Assembly: GCF_902459735.1 (NCBI RefSeq) | Contig: NZ_CABPRV010000005.1 | Location: forward strand, 1-64,000 | Length of the DNA: 64,000 nucleotides | Direction of reading: 5' to 3' | Origin: Pandoraea capi | GTDB taxonomy: Bacteria; Pseudomonadota; Gammaproteobacteria; Burkholderiales; Burkholderiaceae | In this document: positions 10,037 through 16,886 of the stretch, one piece after another | Layout of the letters: the number at the start of each line of letters is the position of its first letter | How positions within the stretch are numbered: position 1 is the stretch's first letter | Program-made: the position numbers and the translations under genes | The notes under the pieces: generated by a model | What the model was told of the DNA's origin: nothing | The model's input: the letters and a program-made list of their open reading frames with translations, nothing else | The model's database searches: none

Positions 10037-10978
10037 ATGGCGCTATGGCGGATCGATCTCGTCTCGTTACGGTTGTTCGTCGCGGTTTGCGAAGAGAGCA
10101 GCATCGCTCGCGCGGCGGAGCGTGAGTTCATTGCACCTTCGGCTGTCAGTAAGCGGATCAACGACCTTGAATCGCTGGTCGGCTCCGCGCTCTTGCAGCG
10201 CCACAAGTGGGGTGTCAGGGCCACACCCGCCGGCGAAGCGCTGCTGCATCACGCGCGCAATGTACTACGCAGCCTTGAGAAGATGCAGGGCGACCTGTCG
10301 GAGTACACAAGTGGCGTACGTGGCCACATCCGCATCTTCGCCAACGTTTCCTCGATTGTCGAAACATTGCCCGACGAGCTTGGCGCCTTTCTGCGGCGTC
10401 ACGAGGGCGTGAAAGTCGACCTGGAGGAGCACACCAGCGCTCAGGTCGTGCGCGGCGTGGCCGACGGGGCCACCGATATCGGCATTTGTTGGGATGCCGT
10501 CGATACGCGCGACGTCGAAGTTTTCCCCTACCGTCACGATCAGATCGTGACCGTGCTCCACCGCGACCATCCACTCGCCTGCGCACCGCAGCTATCGTTC
10601 ATCGAAACGCTGGACTTCGATCAGATCGGCGTTCACCCGGACAGCGCGATGTACACCGTATTCCGGCGCTTAGCCGCAGAGCAGGGTAAAACCGTCAAGT
10701 TTCGGATTCACGTCTCGACGTTCGAAGCGGTCTGCCGCATGGTGCGGGCTCAACTCGGGCTTGCCATCGCGCCCAAGGAAGCCGTTGGTATTTATTCGCA
10801 GGTGACGGACGGCGAAGCTTTGCGAATCGTGCCGCTGACCGACCCGTGGGCGGCGCGCCGTCTGGTCGTCTGCGTTCGCCGCTACGACGCGTTGCCCGTC
10901 GCGTCCCGCATGCTGGTGGACCATTTGTGCGCCCGTAACGTAACGGGGGGGAACGTGCCGGAGGCGGGCGAAGCGTGA
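10037..10978 (+). CDS. LysR-family transcriptional regulator
   Basis: The protein has 313 residues: an N-terminal winged helix-turn-helix (about 5-65, with SSIARAAEREFIAPSAVSKRINDLE) and a LysR_substrate effector domain (about 90-295). ATG 10037 was chosen because a strong GGGAGATAGG precedes it; an upstream in-frame start at 9884 would add 51 atypical residues. It is encoded ahead of and in the same direction as the binding-protein, dehydratase and CoA-transferase genes, so it is the natural candidate regulator of that cluster. LysR effectors are commonly small carboxylic acids, which would fit. The target and effector are inferred. Confidence 0.9.
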   Translation: MALWRIDLVSLRLFVAVCEESSIARAAEREFIAPSAVSKRINDLESLVGSALLQRHKWGVRATPAGEALLHHARNVLRSLEKMQGDLSEYTSGVRGHIRIFANVSSIVETLPDELGAFLRRHEGVKVDLEEHTSAQVVRGVADGATDIGICWDAVDTRDVEVFPYRHDQIVTVLHRDHPLACAPQLSFIETLDFDQIGVHPDSAMYTVFRRLAAEQGKTVKFRIHVSTFEAVCRMVRAQLGLAIAPKEAVGIYSQVTDGEALRIVPLTDPWAARRLVVCVRRYDALPVASRMLVDHLCARNVTGGNVPEAGEA

Positions 10979-11168
10979 CGGAAAGGCGACAGGTCCTTAC
11001 GGCGGGTGCGAGTCCTCGCAGGCAGGCATCGTGAACCGCGATGTCTGGCATGCCGAAACACAACTTGCCGCCATGTCACGGTCAGCGGATGCTCTGGATG
11101 CCGATAGCGATTCCGGCCGACGAGCCGGGGCGCGCCTGTATCTCGCATAGTGCGGGAGGAGACACGCA

Positions 11169-12245
11169 ATGACACATGCCGAAGCGCGCCGCGTGCGCGA
11201 AGCCGTGGGACGCCTGATTCTCGTCGTTACGCTGATGGCGTTGGGCCTTATAGCACTCAGTATGAGCGCCGGCGCCTCCGCTGCACCGGCCCAACCGCTC
11301 GAAAAACCAAAGATCACCATTGCCGTCGGCGGAAAGCCCGGCCTCTATTACCTGCCCCTCACCATCGCAGAGCAACTCGGCTATTTCAAGGACGAGGGGC
11401 TCGACGTCACCATCGATGATTTTGCCGGTGGGTCGAAGGCGTTGCAGGCGGTCGTTGGCGGGAGTGCCGATGTGGGCACCGGCGCCTTCGAACATACGCT
11501 GCTCATGCAGACCAAAGGCATGACCTACCAGTCGTTCGTCGTGCTTGGTGCGGCGCCGCAACTCGTGCTGGGCGTCGTCAAGAGCAAGGCGGCAGAGGTG
11601 AAGTCGGTCAAGGATCTGAAAGGGATGCGGGTAGGCGTCAGCGCGCCCGGCTCGAGTACGCACATGCTGGTGAGTGTTGCGCTGACGAAGGCCGGGCTCA
11701 AGCCGACCGATGTGTCGATCGTTGGCGTCGGGAGCAACGCCACGGTTATTGGCGCGACCCGCAATGGACAAATCGATGCCGTTTCCAACGTGGATCCGAT
11801 GATGACGTTGCTCCAGGAGTCGGGCGACGTGAAGGTGCTGATCGATACGCGTACGCAAGCCGGGACCCGCGCAATGTTCGGCGGTCCGATGCCTGCGGCT
11901 GTCATGTATGCGCCCCAAAACTTCATCCAGAAAAATCCGAGGACGGTACAGGCGCTGGCCAATGCCATCGTGCGAGCCGACAAGTGGTTACAGCGGGCCA
12001 CAGCCGCGCAGTTGCTCAAAACGGTGCCTGAACCCTATCTGCTCGGTGACAAGACGCTCTACCTGAAAGCCTTCGCCAACTGCCGCGAGGCGTTCTCTCC
12101 GGATGGTCTGATGCCGGCCGATGGACCGGCGACAGCACTCAAAGCGCTGGCCTCGTTCTCCCCGGAGGTCAAGCCGTCGCAAATCCGTCTGGGGGATACG
12201 TGGACGAATACGTTCGCCGCACAGGCGAATCGCCAGTATCCCTGA
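11169..12245 (+). CDS. Orphan ABC-type periplasmic substrate-binding protein (NMT1/SsuA-like)
   Basis: The 358 residues begin with a long signal peptide (hydrophobic run about 17-40, cleavage near SAGASAAPAQ). The mature part has the NMT1/SsuA/TauA fold hallmarks: ITIAVGGKPGLYYLPLTIAE, then EQLGYFKDEGLDV, and later GVSAPGSSTHMLVSVAL. The start follows GGGAGGAGACACGCA, an excellent ribosome-binding site. No permease or ATPase is next to it; the next gene encodes an aconitase-like enzyme. It may share a permease encoded elsewhere or act as a sensor for the neighbouring pathway. The ligand is unknown; a carboxylate would suit the downstream enzymes. Confidence 0.82.
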   Translation: MTHAEARRVREAVGRLILVVTLMALGLIALSMSAGASAAPAQPLEKPKITIAVGGKPGLYYLPLTIAEQLGYFKDEGLDVTIDDFAGGSKALQAVVGGSADVGTGAFEHTLLMQTKGMTYQSFVVLGAAPQLVLGVVKSKAAEVKSVKDLKGMRVGVSAPGSSTHMLVSVALTKAGLKPTDVSIVGVGSNATVIGATRNGQIDAVSNVDPMMTLLQESGDVKVLIDTRTQAGTRAMFGGPMPAAVMYAPQNFIQKNPRTVQALANAIVRADKWLQRATAAQLLKTVPEPYLLGDKTLYLKAFANCREAFSPDGLMPADGPATALKALASFSPEVKPSQIRLGDTWTNTFAAQANRQYP

Positions 12246-12373
12246 GCGTTGGTCGACGAACACGCGTTTGGACGTCATGCCCCCACTTTTTCCTCGCTGT
12301 CGCCGGCTGCCTCGGCACGCAACTTGCGATCGAAACGGGTGAACCCATGCGGGAACATTCGAGGAGCGATCTC

Positions 12374-14401
12374 ATGCAAGCCACCGTGCAATTGAATGGC
12401 CGGGTACTGTGGTTGAGCGACCGGGCCGATGCGATGGTCCGTCAACTGGCGGGGGAGGACCTGACGCGTGCCGACGCCGGTCCGCTGCGCGATCAGATAT
12501 CCACCGATGAAATGACGCCCGCCCGGGCATGTCTTGCATTCGACGAATCGCTTGGCGATTACGTTTATGCGGGTTTGCGATGCAGCGAGGACACGACCGA
12601 TCCGGCGGGCGTCTTCCCGGTCAAGCCAAAAGCAGTGCGTGAAGGGGGCTTCGCGTTGTCGGTGGCGGGGTCGCGTCGCGGCAAAGGGTCGTCGCGCGAG
12701 GCCAGCCCGTTCGCCGAGTGGTGTGCCGGCATCCGTATCGTGATTGCCGAGAGTTTCGAGCGCATCTATGCGCAGAATTGCCAGAACCTCGGTCTCCTGA
12801 TGTCCACCGATCTTGCCCTTGCCGAGCGCTTGCAGCGCGGCGAGGCGATTCCCATCGAGGCGTTTCTCGAAGACTGCGATCCGTTGGGCGAGGCCATTGT
12901 CCGTAGCGGCGGGTTGTTCGGCTATACGCGCCGCAGACTGTCCGGAGACATCGTGCCGCCGCAACCTGCGCATGCGCCGGGCGCCATGACTTACGGCGAA
13001 AAAATCATCGCGCGAGCACTGGGCGTTGACCGCGTACGGGCGGGAGATGCGGTGTTCGTCCCCGCAAGCTGGCGCTTCTCCCACGAGTACGTGACACCGA
13101 TGGCCGTCAGTTTCCTGCGTCACGCTTTTGGAGACGAAACACCGGCGTTGCATGATCCGTCGACCGTTCTTTGCTTCGAAGATCATTTGACGCATCTTGA
13201 TGCGGTGTCCGCCGATGGCAGCCGCTCAACGCAAATCGTAGACGCCGCTCGGCGGTTGGGTACCGTTCAGCGCGAGTTCTGTACGCAGCACGACGTGCGT
13301 TTGCACGGACGTGCAGCGGGCGGCGGCTCCGAGGGGATCTGCCACGCGTTGATGCTGGAACGCTATGCGTTACCGGGGCAGATCATCGTTGGTACGGACT
13401 CTCACACGCCCCATTGCGGCGCGGTCGGCGCCTTCGCCTTTGGCGTGGGCGCCACTGAGATGGCGAATGCCTGGTTGACGGGAGACGCACGACTTGCGGT
13501 GCCGGGTACGTGCCTCGTCCACCTCTGTTCTCGCTTGCCGGCGGGCGTCGGCGCCAAGGATCTCGCCCTGCATCTGCTGCACTTACCGTACATCCGCGAT
13601 GGCCGCGCCATCGGGCAGATCATCGAGTTTTCCGGCGAAGCGGTGGCGCACTTGTCGACCGACGAACGGGCCACGCTCACCAACATGGTGGCCGAGATCG
13701 GCGGGCTGACGGGGCTGGTCGTACCGGATCACGAGACCGTACGCTACTTGCGCGAACGACGCGGTATCGACGTCACGTTAGATACGTGGATGACGAGTGA
13801 TACGCAGGCGTCGTATGCGCATGTGATCGAGATCGACTGCGGGCAGGTCGGCGCGATGGTGGCGAGTCCGGGAGACCCGGGCAACGGTGTGGCGCTCACC
13901 GAGCTGTCGGCCGCCGTGCCCATCGACATTGCGTACGGTGGCTCGTGTACGGGCAGCAAGCGCGACGATCTGCGCGCGTGTCACGACGTGCTGTCATGGG
14001 GCCTGTCGCAGGGGCATCGTGTCGCCGACGGCGTGCGCTTCTATCTGCAATATGGAAGCGAAGACGTGCGTCTCTGGTGCGAGGCACAAGGTTACGCGGA
14101 TGTGTTCAGGGCCGCAGGCGTGACGATGCTCTCGCCCGGTTGCGGTGCTTGTGTCAACGCAGGTCCCGGCGTGTCGACGGCAGTGGACGACGTGGTCATC
14201 AGCGCCCAGAACCGTAATTTCCCCGGCCGATCCGGGCCAGGACAAATGTGGCTGGGCAGTCCGGCCACGGTGGCGGCGAGTGCCTTGGCGGGGTACATCG
14301 TCGGCTTCGATCAATTACGACGCGACGGATTCGCGACCCACCTGGCGCGCGTGTCGCCGCGGCGTGGGGGCGAGGCCTCGCGAGTCAGTTCCGGAGGTTA
14401 G
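12374..14401 (+). CDS. Aconitase-superfamily dehydratase with reversed domain order (LeuD-like then LeuC-like)
   Basis: This probable [4Fe-4S] hydro-lyase isomerises or hydrates a hydroxy-di/tricarboxylate. Residues 1-150 form the small swivel domain, with the GSRRGKGSSREA block at 99-110 and AESFERIYAQNCQNLGLL after it. Residues about 205-650 form the large LeuC-like domain, with VGTDSHTPHCGAVGAFAFG (339-357) and the three cluster cysteines Cys525, Cys590 and Cys593 (CTGSK, then SPGCGACVNAG). Classical aconitases run large then small, and isopropylmalate dehydratase uses two chains, so small-then-large in one 675-residue chain is unusual. ATG 12374 was chosen for the GAGGAGCG just upstream; further upstream in-frame starts give low-quality sequence. 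The stop is 3 bases before the CoA-transferase ATG. The substrate cannot be read from sequence. Confidence 0.85.
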   Translation: MQATVQLNGRVLWLSDRADAMVRQLAGEDLTRADAGPLRDQISTDEMTPARACLAFDESLGDYVYAGLRCSEDTTDPAGVFPVKPKAVREGGFALSVAGSRRGKGSSREASPFAEWCAGIRIVIAESFERIYAQNCQNLGLLMSTDLALAERLQRGEAIPIEAFLEDCDPLGEAIVRSGGLFGYTRRRLSGDIVPPQPAHAPGAMTYGEKIIARALGVDRVRAGDAVFVPASWRFSHEYVTPMAVSFLRHAFGDETPALHDPSTVLCFEDHLTHLDAVSADGSRSTQIVDAARRLGTVQREFCTQHDVRLHGRAAGGGSEGICHALMLERYALPGQIIVGTDSHTPHCGAVGAFAFGVGATEMANAWLTGDARLAVPGTCLVHLCSRLPAGVGAKDLALHLLHLPYIRDGRAIGQIIEFSGEAVAHLSTDERATLTNMVAEIGGLTGLVVPDHETVRYLRERRGIDVTLDTWMTSDTQASYAHVIEIDCGQVGAMVASPGDPGNGVALTELSAAVPIDIAYGGSCTGSKRDDLRACHDVLSWGLSQGHRVADGVRFYLQYGSEDVRLWCEAQGYADVFRAAGVTMLSPGCGACVNAGPGVSTAVDDVVISAQNRNFPGRSGPGQMWLGSPATVAASALAGYIVGFDQLRRDGFATHLARVSPRRGGEASRVSSGG

Positions 14402-14404
14402 CCG

Positions 14405-15688
14405 ATGCAGGACGCATTCCCCACGGCGCCGATGCCGCTCAAAGGCATTCGTGTCGTGGAGTTTTCGCACATGGTGATGGGCCCGGCGTGCGGCATGGTG
14501 CTCGGCGATCTCGGCGCCGACGTCATCAAGGTAGAGCCGGTCGGGGGAGACGCTACGCGGCGCTTGCTCGGCACCGGTGCTGGCTTTTTCCGAACATTCA
14601 ACCGTAACAAGCGTAGCCTCGTCGTCGACGTGACGCGCCCCGAAGGCCGTGAACTTATCTTGCGGTTGGTCAGTACCGCAGATGTGCTCATGGAGAACTT
14701 CAAGCCCGGGCGCATGCGCCAGATCGGGCTGGATTACGCCACGTTGTCTCGCTTGAATCCGGCCCTTGTCTACGTCTCCCTCAAAGGTTTCCTGCCGGGG
14801 CCATACGCAGTTCGTACGGCACTCGATGAGGTCGTGCAGATGATGGCGGGACTTGCGTACATGACGGGGCCGCCGGGCCAACCGTTGCGTGCGGGGACGT
14901 CGGTCAACGACATCATGGGGGGCGTGTTCGGTGCGCTCGCTGCGTTGGCGGCGCTTTACGAACGCAAGACGACGGGACGCGGGCAGGAAGTACAGGGTGC
15001 GCTTTTCGAGAATTGCGTGCTGCTCGCGGCGCAACACATGCAACAGTACGCTGTCACCGGTGTCGCACCCGATCCGATGCCGGCACGCGTGTCTGCGTGG
15101 GGCGTGTACGACGTCTTCACGGCGCGCGACGGTGTGCAGATTTTCCTGGCCGTCGTGAGTGACAGCCAGTGGCGCATTTTCTGCGACGTGTTCGGGCGGC
15201 ACGACCTGGCGGACGATCCCCGTCTGGCAACCAATAACGATCGCGTGATGGCGCGCGACTGGTTGCTGCCGATGTTGCGGGACATGATGCAGGGTTTCGA
15301 CGCCAGCTATCTTGCGGCGGCATTCGAGCGCCACGGCTTGCCATTCGCGCCGATCGTCAAACCGGAAGCGTTGTTCGACGATCCGCATCTGCTCGCAAGT
15401 GGCGGACTGGGCGATCTGACGACCGATGACGGCGAGCAGACGCAGGTGCCATTGTTGCCGATCACGATGGCCGGGCAGCGTCTGCCCGCGCGGCGCCCGT
15501 TGCCGACATCGGGCGAGCATACGAACGAGATTTTGCGCGATCTCGGATATCCCGATAGCCAGATTGCGCGTCTGTTGAGCGAGGGGGTGGTGGCGGGACC
15601 GGTGGACGGATCGACGCCGGACGATGCATCCGGCGCGGGCGACCCCGCCGGTCCCGTTTTGTGGAAAGACGGCGCGAATCAGGGGTGA
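14405..15688 (+). CDS. Family III (CaiB/BaiF) CoA-transferase
   Basis: The enzyme moves CoA between carboxylic acids through an aspartyl-CoA thioester. The 427 residues have the fold's N-terminal GIRVVEFSHMVMGPACGMVLGDLGADVIKVE and NRNKRSLVVDV motifs. The catalytic aspartate is Asp169 in GTSVNDIMGG, the same number as in formyl-CoA transferase. The start lies 3 bases after the dehydratase stop, so the two are translationally linked and probably act in sequence. Good substrate guesses are citramalate, mesaconate, itaconate or a related branched dicarboxylate, as for the SmtAB and Ict relatives. This is inference. Confidence 0.88.
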   Translation: MQDAFPTAPMPLKGIRVVEFSHMVMGPACGMVLGDLGADVIKVEPVGGDATRRLLGTGAGFFRTFNRNKRSLVVDVTRPEGRELILRLVSTADVLMENFKPGRMRQIGLDYATLSRLNPALVYVSLKGFLPGPYAVRTALDEVVQMMAGLAYMTGPPGQPLRAGTSVNDIMGGVFGALAALAALYERKTTGRGQEVQGALFENCVLLAAQHMQQYAVTGVAPDPMPARVSAWGVYDVFTARDGVQIFLAVVSDSQWRIFCDVFGRHDLADDPRLATNNDRVMARDWLLPMLRDMMQGFDASYLAAAFERHGLPFAPIVKPEALFDDPHLLASGGLGDLTTDDGEQTQVPLLPITMAGQRLPARRPLPTSGEHTNEILRDLGYPDSQIARLLSEGVVAGPVDGSTPDDASGAGDPAGPVLWKDGANQG

Positions 15689-15803
15689 GCGCCGATTTCT
15701 CGGAGTTTTCCGAGGCGCGTCGGCGTGTTGTCTGCTTGCGGCTCGATGGGCGAGCGCGGTACGGTATGGACATCTACCGTCACTTTGCTTCCCCCATCAC
15801 GCT

Positions 15804-16886
15804 ATGACCGACACGCTCGATGCCCTGAACGCCCGTCAAACGTCCGCATTGCCCGACGCCTCAGACAAACCATTGTCCGGCGTAACCGTGCTCGATCTGA
15901 CGCGGCTGCTGCCGGGACCTCTCGCCGGTCAGCGCCTTGCCGAAATGGGGGCGCACGTCATCAAGATCGAGGACACGGGCGCGGGCGACTATGCCCGCGA
16001 GATGATGCTCAGAGAGGGAGAATCGGCACCGAGTGCCTTCTGGCGACTCCTGAATCGTGGAAAAACCGTCGAGCGGCTGGATCTCAAGCAAGCGGGAGAT
16101 CGCGCGCGGTTTCTTGCGCATGTTGCCCGTGCGGACGTCCTGCTCGAAGGGTTCCGGCCCGGTGTGATGGCGCGTCTGGGGTTCGATTTCGAAACGCTCG
16201 TGGGCGTGCGGCCATCGTTGGTGATGGCATCGATCTCCGGTTACGGACAACAGGGACCGATGTCGCAAGCGGCCGGACACGATATCAACTACATCGGTTA
16301 TGCGGGCGTACTCGATCAACTGGCCGACGCGGGCGACGCGCCAATCGTTCCGAACTTCCAGATCGGCGACCTTTATGGCGGCGGGCAGGCTGCCGTACAA
16401 GCAGTGCTGGCGGCGCTCGTCGCGGCGCAACGCACCGGACGCGGGCGTTGGCTGGACATCTCGATGACACACGAAGTGTTTCGCTCGAACATCGTTCCAG
16501 CGGTCGCGCTGCATCGTCAGTGCAGTGCTTCACGCGCGGGCAAGGATCTGCTCAATGGCGGCGTGCCGTGCTATCAGGTGTACCGCACACTCGATGACCG
16601 TTACATGGCCGTTGGCGCACTCGAACTGAAGTTTTGGGAGACGTTGTGCGATGTGCTCGAACGGAGCGATTGGAAGGCGCGTCACTGGTCGTTAGGGCAA
16701 ACGATCGGCGGTTCGGACGCTATGGCGCTTCAGGCCGAATTGGCTGCCGTGTTTGGCAGTGCGTCGCAAGCCGACTGGACCGCACGTTTTGCTGACGCCG
16801 ATTGTTGTGTGACGCCTGTACTTCGGCTTGAGGAAGCGATCAAACATCCGCTGTTTGCGCAAACGAGAGAGGCACTGCTGCCGTGA
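15804..16886 (+). CDS. Alpha-methylacyl-CoA racemase-like protein of CoA-transferase family III
   Basis: The chain is 360 residues from ATG 15804; the longer in-frame start at 15624 lies inside the preceding gene and is unlikely. The fold matches CaiB/BaiF (SGVTVLDLTRLLPGPLAGQR, then HVIKIEDTGAGDYAREMM). The residues lining the active site are those of methylacyl-CoA racemase rather than of a CoA-transferase: His159 in AGHDINY, Asp189 in IGDLYGGG and Glu274 in GALELKFW. The predicted reaction is epimerisation of the 2-methyl centre of an acyl-CoA. It lies 115 bases after the CoA-transferase on the same strand and could act on its product. Some annotations would call it simply a CoA-transferase. 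Confidence 0.83.
   Translation: MTDTLDALNARQTSALPDASDKPLSGVTVLDLTRLLPGPLAGQRLAEMGAHVIKIEDTGAGDYAREMMLREGESAPSAFWRLLNRGKTVERLDLKQAGDRARFLAHVARADVLLEGFRPGVMARLGFDFETLVGVRPSLVMASISGYGQQGPMSQAAGHDINYIGYAGVLDQLADAGDAPIVPNFQIGDLYGGGQAAVQAVLAALVAAQRTGRGRWLDISMTHEVFRSNIVPAVALHRQCSASRAGKDLLNGGVPCYQVYRTLDDRYMAVGALELKFWETLCDVLERSDWKARHWSLGQTIGGSDAMALQAELAAVFGSASQADWTARFADADCCVTPVLRLEEAIKHPLFAQTREALLP

What the first reader, a model, noticed from the sequence alone, without database searches (positions are those of the whole stretch)
10037..16886. Possible undescribed branched-dicarboxylate pathway: LysR, orphan binding protein, fused dehydratase, CoA-transferase and racemase
Five same-strand genes combine an NMT1-type binding protein, an aconitase-superfamily hydro-lyase, a CoA-transferase starting 3 bases later and a methylacyl-CoA-racemase-like enzyme. 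Chemically this reads as: hydrate or isomerise a branched hydroxy-dicarboxylate, activate it with CoA, then epimerise the methyl carbon. The pieces resemble parts of the itaconate, citramalate and dimethylmalate routes but not in an arrangement I know. A CoA-ester lyase is missing and would have to be elsewhere.
Basis: partly seen in the sequence, partly recalled or inferred. Interest (0 to 1): 0.72.

Follow-up and report, generated by a model that had tools for sequence, protein, structure and literature searches.

The report
Pandoraea operon for branched-acid breakdown
A small gene cluster in the bacterium Pandoraea probably imports a branched acid, rearranges it and tags it with coenzyme A; related bacteria carry the likely next enzyme beside the same genes, so the cluster looks like most of an undescribed breakdown route whose exact food molecule is still unknown.

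Summary
LysR, an NMT1-type binding protein, a one-chain isopropylmalate-isomerase-like dehydratase and a family III CoA-transferase form a unit under purifying selection. The racemase does not belong: in 18 of 19 other-genus loci its orthologue sits in an ABC-F/radA/alr block, and one Pandoraea (G245) has the unit but no racemase.
The missing lyase is suggested by neighbourhood. In 38 of 40 sampled loci of other genera the CoA-transferase orthologue lies within 3 kb of a same-strand HMG-CoA-lyase-like gene. In Trinickia, Burkholderia, Paraburkholderia and Microvirga the dehydratase joins that pair; in Microvirga an NMT1-type ABC importer does too; in Roseomonas gilardii lyase and transferase are fused, their gene overlapping the dehydratase gene.
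Best model: import, isomerisation or hydration of a substituted malate/maleate, CoA activation, cleavage to a 2-oxo acid plus acetyl-CoA: leucine-type chain extension backwards. Substrate inferred, not shown.
Against: two Pandoraea lost the dehydratase independently and kept the transferase; no window-type Pandoraea locus examined carries the lyase; 0 of the 40 sampled loci has the dehydratase (three known positives were left out of that sample). A new variant of a known kind.

The parts
10037..10978 (+). LysR-type regulator, probably of the operon behind it
   Evidence: PF00126 and PF03466; 68-98% identical at the same place in 20 of 21 other Pandoraea loci (the 21st, L073, ends before it); relatives at 35-51% stand beside many HMGL-CoA-transferase pairs in other genera
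11044..11056 (+). putative LysR box (T-N11-A around the dyad GGCATGCC) between LysR and the binding protein
   Evidence: GGCATGCC conserved in 15 of 15 Pandoraea aligned; the first T is changed in G154; the exact 13-mer occurs once on the + strand of the window. Binding not tested
11169..12245 (+). NMT1/SsuA-type periplasmic binding protein without its own permease or ATPase genes beside it
   Evidence: PF09084, PF13379; TIGR01728 SsuA family, below its cut-off; absent in G048 and G072, whose loci reach that place. A distant NMT1-type protein with ATPase and permease stands in the corresponding Microvirga run of genes
12374..14401 (+). single-chain aconitase/isopropylmalate-isomerase-like dehydratase, small domain first (675 aa)
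   Evidence: PF00694 + PF00330; three cluster cysteines and catalytic motifs kept; own clade, support 100/99, on the C-terminal part; start from a conserved ribosome site
14405..15688 (+). family III (CaiB/BaiF) CoA-transferase; nearest named profile succinate-glutarate CoA-transferase
   Evidence: PF02515 complete; NCBIfam NF052585 281 bits against cut-off 750; aspartate of the acyl-enzyme site aligned; orthologues beside an HMG-CoA-lyase-like gene in 38 of 40 sampled loci
15736..15765 (+). conserved promoter-like element in front of the racemase (TTGCGG, 18 bases, TACGGT)
   Evidence: TTGC and TACGGT present in 15 of 15 Pandoraea aligned; the consensus scanner did not report it
15804..16886 (+). 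alpha-methylacyl-CoA-racemase-type protein; a neighbour, not judged part of the pathway
   Evidence: His126, Asp156 and Glu241 of mycobacterial MCR aligned and kept (roles recalled); orthologue in another conserved block in 18 of 19 other-genus loci; absent in G245

Best explanation
LysR, binding protein, dehydratase and CoA-transferase are the Pandoraea form of a catabolic module for a substituted malate or maleate (HOOC-C(OH)R1-CHR2-COOH or the matching maleate). Steps: (1) the binding protein delivers the acid to an NMT1-type ABC importer encoded elsewhere; (2) the [4Fe-4S] dehydratase, the catabolic counterpart of isopropylmalate isomerase, hydrates the maleate or turns the 3-substituted malate into the 2-substituted one; (3) the CoA-transferase moves CoA from an acyl-CoA such as succinyl-CoA to the distal carboxyl; (4) an HMG-CoA-lyase-like enzyme, encoded beside the transferase in relatives and in trans in Pandoraea, cleaves the 3-hydroxyacyl-CoA to a 2-oxo acid plus acetyl-CoA (or another acyl-CoA). 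This is LeuA/LeuCD chain-extension chemistry run in the degradative direction. Shown here: gene content, conserved catalytic residues, linkage, selection, loss pattern. Inferred: all reactions, the direction and the substrate; citramalate/citraconate-type acids are the simplest candidates.
For: CoA-transferase orthologues (59-68% identical): 38 of 40 loci sampled from other genera have an HMGL-like gene within 3 kb on the same strand; L278 and L289 have none. Baseline in the window's own genome: of at most 16 family III CoA-transferase genes, 2 have an HMGL-like gene within 3 kb, 1 of them on the same strand. Dehydratase, CoA-transferase and HMGL-like gene together: Trinickia L092, Burkholderia L093 and L094, Paraburkholderia L096, order relative L132, P. 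terrae L203 and Caballeronia L204, Microvirga L212 with NMT1-type binding protein, ATPase and permease in the same run, Comamonadaceae L208 in neighbouring operons. Roseomonas gilardii L202: HMGL and CoA-transferase domains in one 755-aa protein whose gene overlaps the dehydratase gene by 4 bases. The dehydratase family also stands between LeuA-like and isopropylmalate-dehydrogenase-like genes in Streptomyces KN37, which fits alkylmalate isomerisation. Catalytic residues kept in the window enzymes.
Against: The dehydratase is missing at the locus in G031 and G154 with different relics, and split in G140, while LysR, binding protein and CoA-transferase stay with dN/dS of 0.02-0.13 in the pairs computed: the rest has a use without it. 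None of the 21 other Pandoraea loci examined carries the lyase. 0 of the 40 sampled CoA-transferase loci has the dehydratase in the roughly 6 kb fetched on each side; three further listed loci that do have it (G013, G169, G113: L040, L042, L058) were known before and not put into the 40. In the sister half of the dehydratase tree only L049, L058 and L132 of 34 rows have such a CoA-transferase nearby. In several Pandoraea genomes (for example G192, G222, G109) the search with the HMGL-like protein finds only one relative, at about 40% identity. No binding, activity or expression data.
Confidence: 0.55

Rival explanations
1. The CoA-transferase and its usual HMGL partner break down 3-hydroxy-3-methylglutarate: CoA transfer gives HMG-CoA, which HMG-CoA lyase cleaves to acetyl-CoA and acetoacetate. 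The dehydratase is an occasional neighbour for another acid or for an unsaturated precursor. In Pandoraea the general HMG-CoA lyase serves.
For: The best named profile is succinate-glutarate CoA-transferase and human succinate-hydroxymethylglutarate CoA-transferase is among the nearest solved structures; the partner passes the HMG-CoA-lyase profile NF004283 (261 against 246 bits); dehydratase loss is tolerated; the own genome has a strong HMG-CoA lyase at C3:519967 (480 bits), a second over the cut-off at C2 (328) and a third just under it at C7 (245.8).
Against: All CoA-transferase profile scores lie far under their cut-offs. The dehydratase keeps canonical aconitase residues, which fit a malate-type acid and not HMG (family knowledge). 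It recurs with the HMGL-transferase pair in several lineages and beside the fusion gene.
Confidence: 0.24
2. The dehydratase is a passenger: it uses a separate acid, as its own-genome paralogue with LysR and MFS may do, and shares only a transcript with the binding protein and CoA-transferase.
For: Two independent deletions that leave neighbours intact; most rows of the sister clade stand without such a CoA-transferase, for example as LysR-dehydratase-MFS or LysR-dehydratase-TctC-RraA.
Against: 3-base spacing to the CoA-transferase gene in the window, joint recurrence in other genera and classes, 4-base overlap with an HMGL-CoA-transferase fusion gene.
Confidence: 0.15
3. One reading: dehydratase, CoA-transferase and racemase act in series and the racemase epimerises a methyl-bearing CoA ester such as 3-methylmalyl-CoA or 2,3-dimethylmalyl-CoA before a lyase encoded elsewhere.
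For: The racemase gene follows the CoA-transferase gene in 20 of 21 other Pandoraea loci examined, its catalytic residues are intact, and three CitE-like (PF03328) proteins exist elsewhere in the genome.
Against: The orthologue stands in another conserved block in 18 of 19 other-genus loci and in none of the 40 sampled CoA-transferase loci; it remains where the dehydratase is lost; G245 keeps the rest and has no racemase at the locus or, at E<=1e-85, in the genome; it has its own conserved upstream element.
Confidence: 0.05

Closest known systems
Isopropylmalate isomerase (LeuCD) and its benzylmalate relative HphCD
   Same: Same fold family and conserved catalytic residues; a relative of the window enzyme stands between LeuA-like and LeuB-like genes in Streptomyces. 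HphCD was seen only as a name and role in passages of PMC12961565.
   Different: One chain with the small domain first; own clade apart from the genome's two LeuC-type proteins; all NCBIfam scores under cut-off; set among degradative genes. The HphCD sequence was not compared.
Bacterial itaconate/methylsuccinate degradation cluster (ict-ich-ccl)
   Same: CoA activation of a branched dicarboxylate by a CoA-transferase and later cleavage by a CoA-ester lyase (start of abstract and passages of PMC12290011).
   Different: No itaconyl-CoA hydratase or CitE-type lyase at the locus; a [4Fe-4S] dehydratase would act before activation; the lyase of relatives is HMGL-type.
Mesaconate route of Burkholderia xenovorans (class I fumarase, citramalate CoA-transferase, citramalyl-CoA lyase)
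   Same: Hydration first, then CoA transfer, then cleavage (figure legend among passages of PMC4682846).
   Different: There the hydratase is a class I fumarase. The original paper PMC4510160 is not held, so its transferase and lyase genes could not be compared.
Dimethylmalate dehydratase DmdAB (Eubacterium barkeri)
   Same: LeuCD-type hydratase of a branched malate (recalled).
   Different: Two subunits and a following lyase of another superfamily that acts without CoA (recalled); here one chain plus CoA-transferase.
SUGCT plus HMG-CoA lyase
   Same: Nearest named CoA-transferase and lyase profiles.
   Different: No dehydratase in that pair (recalled); transferase score far below the named family's cut-off.

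Membership tests
Aconitase superfamily (canonical, not AcnX) | Three cluster cysteines and the DSH, RNFxGR and GSSRE motifs | tested here: met
   Aligned with porcine aconitase and archaeal isomerases; invariant over 9 diverse members
Isopropylmalate isomerase LeuCD | Separate large and small subunits, leucine operon, NCBIfam cut-offs | tested here: not met
   One chain, small domain first; best 308 bits against cut-off 385; separate large- and small-subunit genes at C5:177032 and C5:178730 of the same genome, taken by me as the leucine enzyme
Family III CoA-transferases | PF02515 over full length and catalytic Asp | tested here: met
   370 bits; Asp aligned with SUGCT and YfdE; which Asp is catalytic is recalled
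Alpha-methylacyl-CoA racemase (second PF02515 gene) | His126, Asp156, Glu241 of mycobacterial MCR | tested here: met
   All three aligned identically; residue roles recalled. Activity not testable here
Itaconate degradation cluster | itaconyl-CoA hydratase and CitE-like lyase with the CoA-transferase | tested here: not met
   Pfam on eight genes between 6.1 and 17.9 kb shows neither; the next genes (ThyA, DinB, MgtC, photolyase) were named by eye; PF03328 hits lie on other contigs. No genome-wide search for the hydratase was made
Dimethylmalate pathway (Dmd) | dehydratase of two subunits plus dimethylmalate lyase | tested here: not met
   One-chain enzyme; no such lyase among the eight neighbours scanned; not sought genome-wide
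HMGL-CoA-transferase module | HMG-CoA-lyase-like gene beside the CoA-transferase gene | tested here: not met
   Absent at the window and at 21 other window-type Pandoraea loci; present in 38 of 40 sampled orthologous loci and at separate loci of Pandoraea G062, G031, G216, G168
All of the above | Substrate and activity | not testable with these tools

The most novel reading that the evidence does not exclude
An undescribed catabolic pathway that runs 2-oxo-acid chain extension backwards: a one-chain malate isomerase, a CoA-transferase and an HMGL-type lyase turn 2- or 3-substituted malates into a 2-oxo acid and acetyl-CoA. Where a 4-hydroxyphenylpyruvate dioxygenase gene joins the lyase-transferase cluster (B. 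territorii, P. panacisoli, P. terrae, G877, G034 and, apparently split, Caballeronia Sq4a) the substrate could be an aryl malate such as the plant metabolite eucomic acid, 2-(4-hydroxybenzyl)malate (recalled), which would release 4-hydroxyphenylpyruvate for that dioxygenase.
Probability: 0.3. Interest if true: 0.72.

Novelty: new variant of a known kind. Interest (0 to 1): 0.5.

Why it matters
It offers a testable function for a dehydratase family that public records mostly call 'aconitase family protein' and for which no NCBIfam model reaches its cut-off on the window protein, and for a CoA-transferase that 148 of 299 Burkholderiaceae genomes carry at E<=1e-115, usually beside an HMGL-like gene in the sample examined (38 of 40). 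If the reverse-chain-extension model holds, it explains how soil and plant bacteria could use substituted malates, and it removes the racemase from the picture.

Tried and rejected
Racemase as pathway member: rejected. Itaconate cluster: rejected for lack of the hydratase and a CitE-type lyase at the locus. Leucine biosynthesis: unlikely, separate large- and small-subunit genes exist elsewhere. A shared operator with the HMGL clusters: GGCATGCC was found in 1 of 27 LysR-HMGL intergenic stretches (L315); the printed part of their alignment shows an ATTCC...GGAA motif instead, so this is not used as evidence. A spaced T/A pattern of my own choosing, not a proper T-N11-A box, gave 89 matches in the window against a mean of 79 in shuffles (18 shuffles reached it), so it says nothing; the box rests on conservation alone. 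Structure of the dehydratase: not obtained. Literature: the listings show no paper that I could recognise as describing dehydratase plus CoA-transferase plus HMGL; the library lacks most subscription papers, among them PMC4510160. Class- and phylum-wide draws found few family members (1 of 369 and 5 of 398 genomes at E<=1e-90, the window's own genome counted), so it is mainly Burkholderiaceae in those draws, although plasmid records of other groups carry it.

Limits of own scripts and samples: the gene caller is simple and picked antisense frames in some loci (for example L068, L071, L072), so linkage counts rest on tblastn. Row L228 in the tree was a wrong-frame translation and is ignored. 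Trees contain duplicate loci of one genome, and includes loci fetched by an HMGL search (L103-L112, L128, L129, L136, L137), so its linkage is biased; one search was made to avoid this. Its 40 loci were picked by hand from 111 non-Pandoraea hits listed (counted by hand; more were not listed), spread over genera; three listed loci already known to have the dehydratase (G013, G169 at C2:465652, G113) were not included; some stretches end near a contig end (L300, L310, L313). The 13 plasmid loci were chosen from 33 records.
Full report
WHAT IS THERE. The window lies in a Pandoraea genome (G000, contig C5; 5.85 Mb; named relatives). The dehydratase carries PF00694 before PF00330 in one chain. Its ATG at 12374 follows an AGGAG conserved in 13 of 13 Pandoraea aligned. 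Domain order 4-linker-1-2-3 is a known variant of the superfamily (passages of PMC8184944), but all NCBIfam models score under their cut-offs.

CATALYTIC PARTS. Against porcine aconitase and archaeal isomerases the dehydratase keeps three cluster cysteines, the DSH and RNFPGR motifs and GSSRE; these are invariant over nine members from Pandoraea to Streptomyces. The CoA-transferase keeps the acyl-enzyme aspartate when aligned with human SUGCT and YfdE. The racemase keeps His126, Asp156 and Glu241 of mycobacterial MCR (roles recalled).

CONSERVATION IN THE GENUS. Of 32 Pandoraea genomes (one reduced, G010, 1.2 Mb), the window-type CoA-transferase is found in 31, the window-type dehydratase in 29, counting the split copy of G140 (G031 and G154 have only the paralogue), and the racemase in 30 (missing in G010 and G245). 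In tblastn of 21 other Pandoraea stretches (L059-L077, L178, L201) the order LysR, binding protein, dehydratase, CoA-transferase, racemase recurs, with these exceptions: no binding protein in G048 and G072 (the G228 contig L073 stops before that place), no dehydratase in G031 and G154, no racemase in G245. In G245 the contig goes on 2.5 kb past the CoA-transferase with an unrelated 642-aa frame. The genes are under purifying selection in the pairs computed.

A NATURAL EXPERIMENT. In G031 and G154 the dehydratase is gone. G031 keeps a relic that matches window 12629-12803 and resumes at 14369; G154 resumes at 14231. Neither remnant contains the other, and the nearest relative of G031 in the CoA-transferase tree, G062 (support 100/99), has the gene, so the losses are independent. 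LysR, binding protein, CoA-transferase and racemase remain at 81-94% identity (the LysR alignment of G031 runs into one stop, which I place near its end from the frame listed). dN/dS of LysR, binding protein and CoA-transferase in pairs with these two species is 0.02-0.13 (the highest, 0.134, is the CoA-transferase between G031 and terrigena, where Phr gives 0.125 and F12 0.201). The CoA-transferase therefore seems to have a use without the dehydratase. This fits an accessory dehydratase that feeds isomers or unsaturated forms into a core route; it also fits the passenger rival.

THE RACEMASE IS NOT PART OF IT. Matches at E<=1e-85 occur in 66 of 150 family genomes, 14 of them Pandoraea. Of 19 other-genus loci examined (50-64% identical), 18 share one block: ABC-F ATPase, racemase, RadA, alanine racemase, LplT-like transporter (names read from the sequences by me; L193 is the exception), and none of the 19 has a dehydratase or CoA-transferase of this kind in its 17 kb. 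None of the 40 CoA-transferase loci has it. G245 lacks it. In Pandoraea TTGC...TACGGT upstream is conserved in 15 of 15, which suggests its own promoter; the scanner did not report it. For the other side: 20 of the 21 Pandoraea loci do have it next to the CoA-transferase.

THE MISSING LYASE. In a tree of 58 rows the window CoA-transferase belongs to a clade of 41 rows (support 83/79; 100/99 with the next branch, L049) in which all 19 rows outside the Pandoraea window-type locus are next to an HMGL-like gene, L049 being without one. Part of those rows came from an HMGL search, so I made a count without that bias: 299 family genomes were searched with the CoA-transferase (148 matched), 40 of the 111 listed hits outside Pandoraea were fetched, and an HMGL-like gene lies within 3 kb on the same strand in 38 of 40, LysR in 24, the MFS transporter in 21, the dioxygenase in 1, the dehydratase in 0 (checked). 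Three listed loci already in hand that do have the dehydratase (G013, G169, G113) were not among the 40. Baseline: of at most 16 CoA-transferase genes of this family in the window's genome, 2 have an HMGL-like gene within 3 kb, 1 on the same strand. The HMGL-like protein passes the HMG-CoA-lyase subfamily cut-off (261 against 246 bits) and aligns over most of its length with solved HMG-CoA lyases.

WHERE ALL PARTS MEET. Dehydratase, CoA-transferase and HMGL-like gene are together in Trinickia terrae L092, Burkholderia E7m39 L093, B. territorii L094, P. panacisoli L096 and G877 L132, P. terrae L203 and Caballeronia L204. Of 13 plasmid loci examined, out of 33 records, 6 have the three within the stretch (L202, L203, L204, L206, L208, L212). 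In Roseomonas gilardii L202 lyase and transferase are one 755-aa protein (PF00682 at 11-287, PF02515 at 343-721), and its gene overlaps the dehydratase gene by 4 bases. In Microvirga VF16 L212 one run reads HMGL, CoA-transferase, a hexapeptide protein, an NMT1-type binding protein, ATPase, permease, dehydratase. That run suggests that the orphan binding protein of Pandoraea is the remaining part of a comparable importer, though the two binding proteins are at most distant relatives (no match at the limits).

WHAT THE DEHYDRATASE FAMILY DOES. On its C-terminal part it forms its own clade apart from the genome's LeuC-type, AcnA/AcnD-type and AcnB-type proteins (20 rows, of which L228 is a wrong frame). 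Relatives stand as LysR-dehydratase-MFS (for example L039 in the own genome, L213, L214), LysR-dehydratase-TctC-RraA (L207, L208, L209), and LeuA-like, dehydratase, isopropylmalate-dehydrogenase-like in a Streptomyces NRPS/PKS cluster (L211). The last is the clearest hint to chemistry: isomerisation of a 2-substituted malate made by a LeuA-like synthase. In degradation the same step followed by CoA transfer and an HMGL-type cleavage is the reverse.

SUBSTRATE. Not determined. HMGL chemistry on a 2-substituted malyl-CoA would give a 2-oxo acid and acetyl-CoA; with a methyl group that is citramalate to pyruvate. Where a 4-hydroxyphenylpyruvate dioxygenase gene (TIGR01263, 393 bits against 277) and an MFS protein nearest to the aromatic acid/H+ symport model (184 bits against a cut-off of 419) join the cluster, an aryl malate such as eucomic acid would fit; this is my proposal and rests on no assay. 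In Pandoraea no dioxygenase is adjacent. Candidate lyases in trans in the own genome are three HMGL-like proteins (C3:519967, C2:257340, C7:100536) and three CitE-like proteins.

REGULATION. Between LysR and the binding protein GGCATGCC (inside 11044-11056) is conserved in 15 of 15 Pandoraea, a plausible LysR box. Divergent LysR-HMGL clusters show a different dyad.

VERDICT. Observation confirmed; interpretation partly supported. The four-gene unit is most likely a degradative module of a new variety whose lyase is suggested by its relatives; the racemase should be dropped. I found no description of it in the papers I could search (calls named under Tried and rejected), but a key subscription paper could not be read.

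Noticed in passing
G000:C4:88881-90827 (L039): Own-genome paralogue of the dehydratase (54% identical) in a LysR-dehydratase-MFS unit that recurs in other Burkholderiaceae loci; function unknown.
   Followed up: partly
L202 6737-9004: Roseomonas gilardii plasmid: HMG-CoA-lyase-like and CoA-transferase domains fused in one protein, gene overlapping the dehydratase gene by 4 bases.
   Followed up: yes
L211 6704-10972: Streptomyces KN37 plasmid: LeuA-like, dehydratase of this family and isopropylmalate-dehydrogenase-like genes inside an NRPS/PKS cluster, probably a 2-oxo-acid chain-extension cassette.
   Followed up: partly
L094, L096, L203, L132, L313; L204: A 4-hydroxyphenylpyruvate dioxygenase gene sits inside the HMGL-CoA-transferase cluster; in Caballeronia L204 it appears split over two frames and is not listed as a gene.
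   Followed up: partly
L207, L208, L209, L210, L212: RraA-family (aldolase-like) genes accompany the dehydratase in Comamonadaceae, Cupriavidus and Microvirga, with TctC-type binding proteins in the first two groups.
   Followed up: no
L294, L298, L292 and others of L277-L316: In one search, families B4-B6 (by eye: an IclR-type regulator, another MFS transporter, an amidohydrolase that looks like a lactonase) each occur in 10 of the 40 CoA-transferase loci.
   Followed up: no
G000:C2:256126-258173, C2:328710-330554, C14:69819-72198: Three further CoA-transferase plus lyase pairs in the same genome (one HMGL-like, two CitE-like).
   Followed up: no
window 15804-16886; L067: The racemase gene stands next to the CoA-transferase and near dinB in Pandoraea instead of in the ABC-F/radA/alr block of the other genera, and is missing in G245.
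   Followed up: partly
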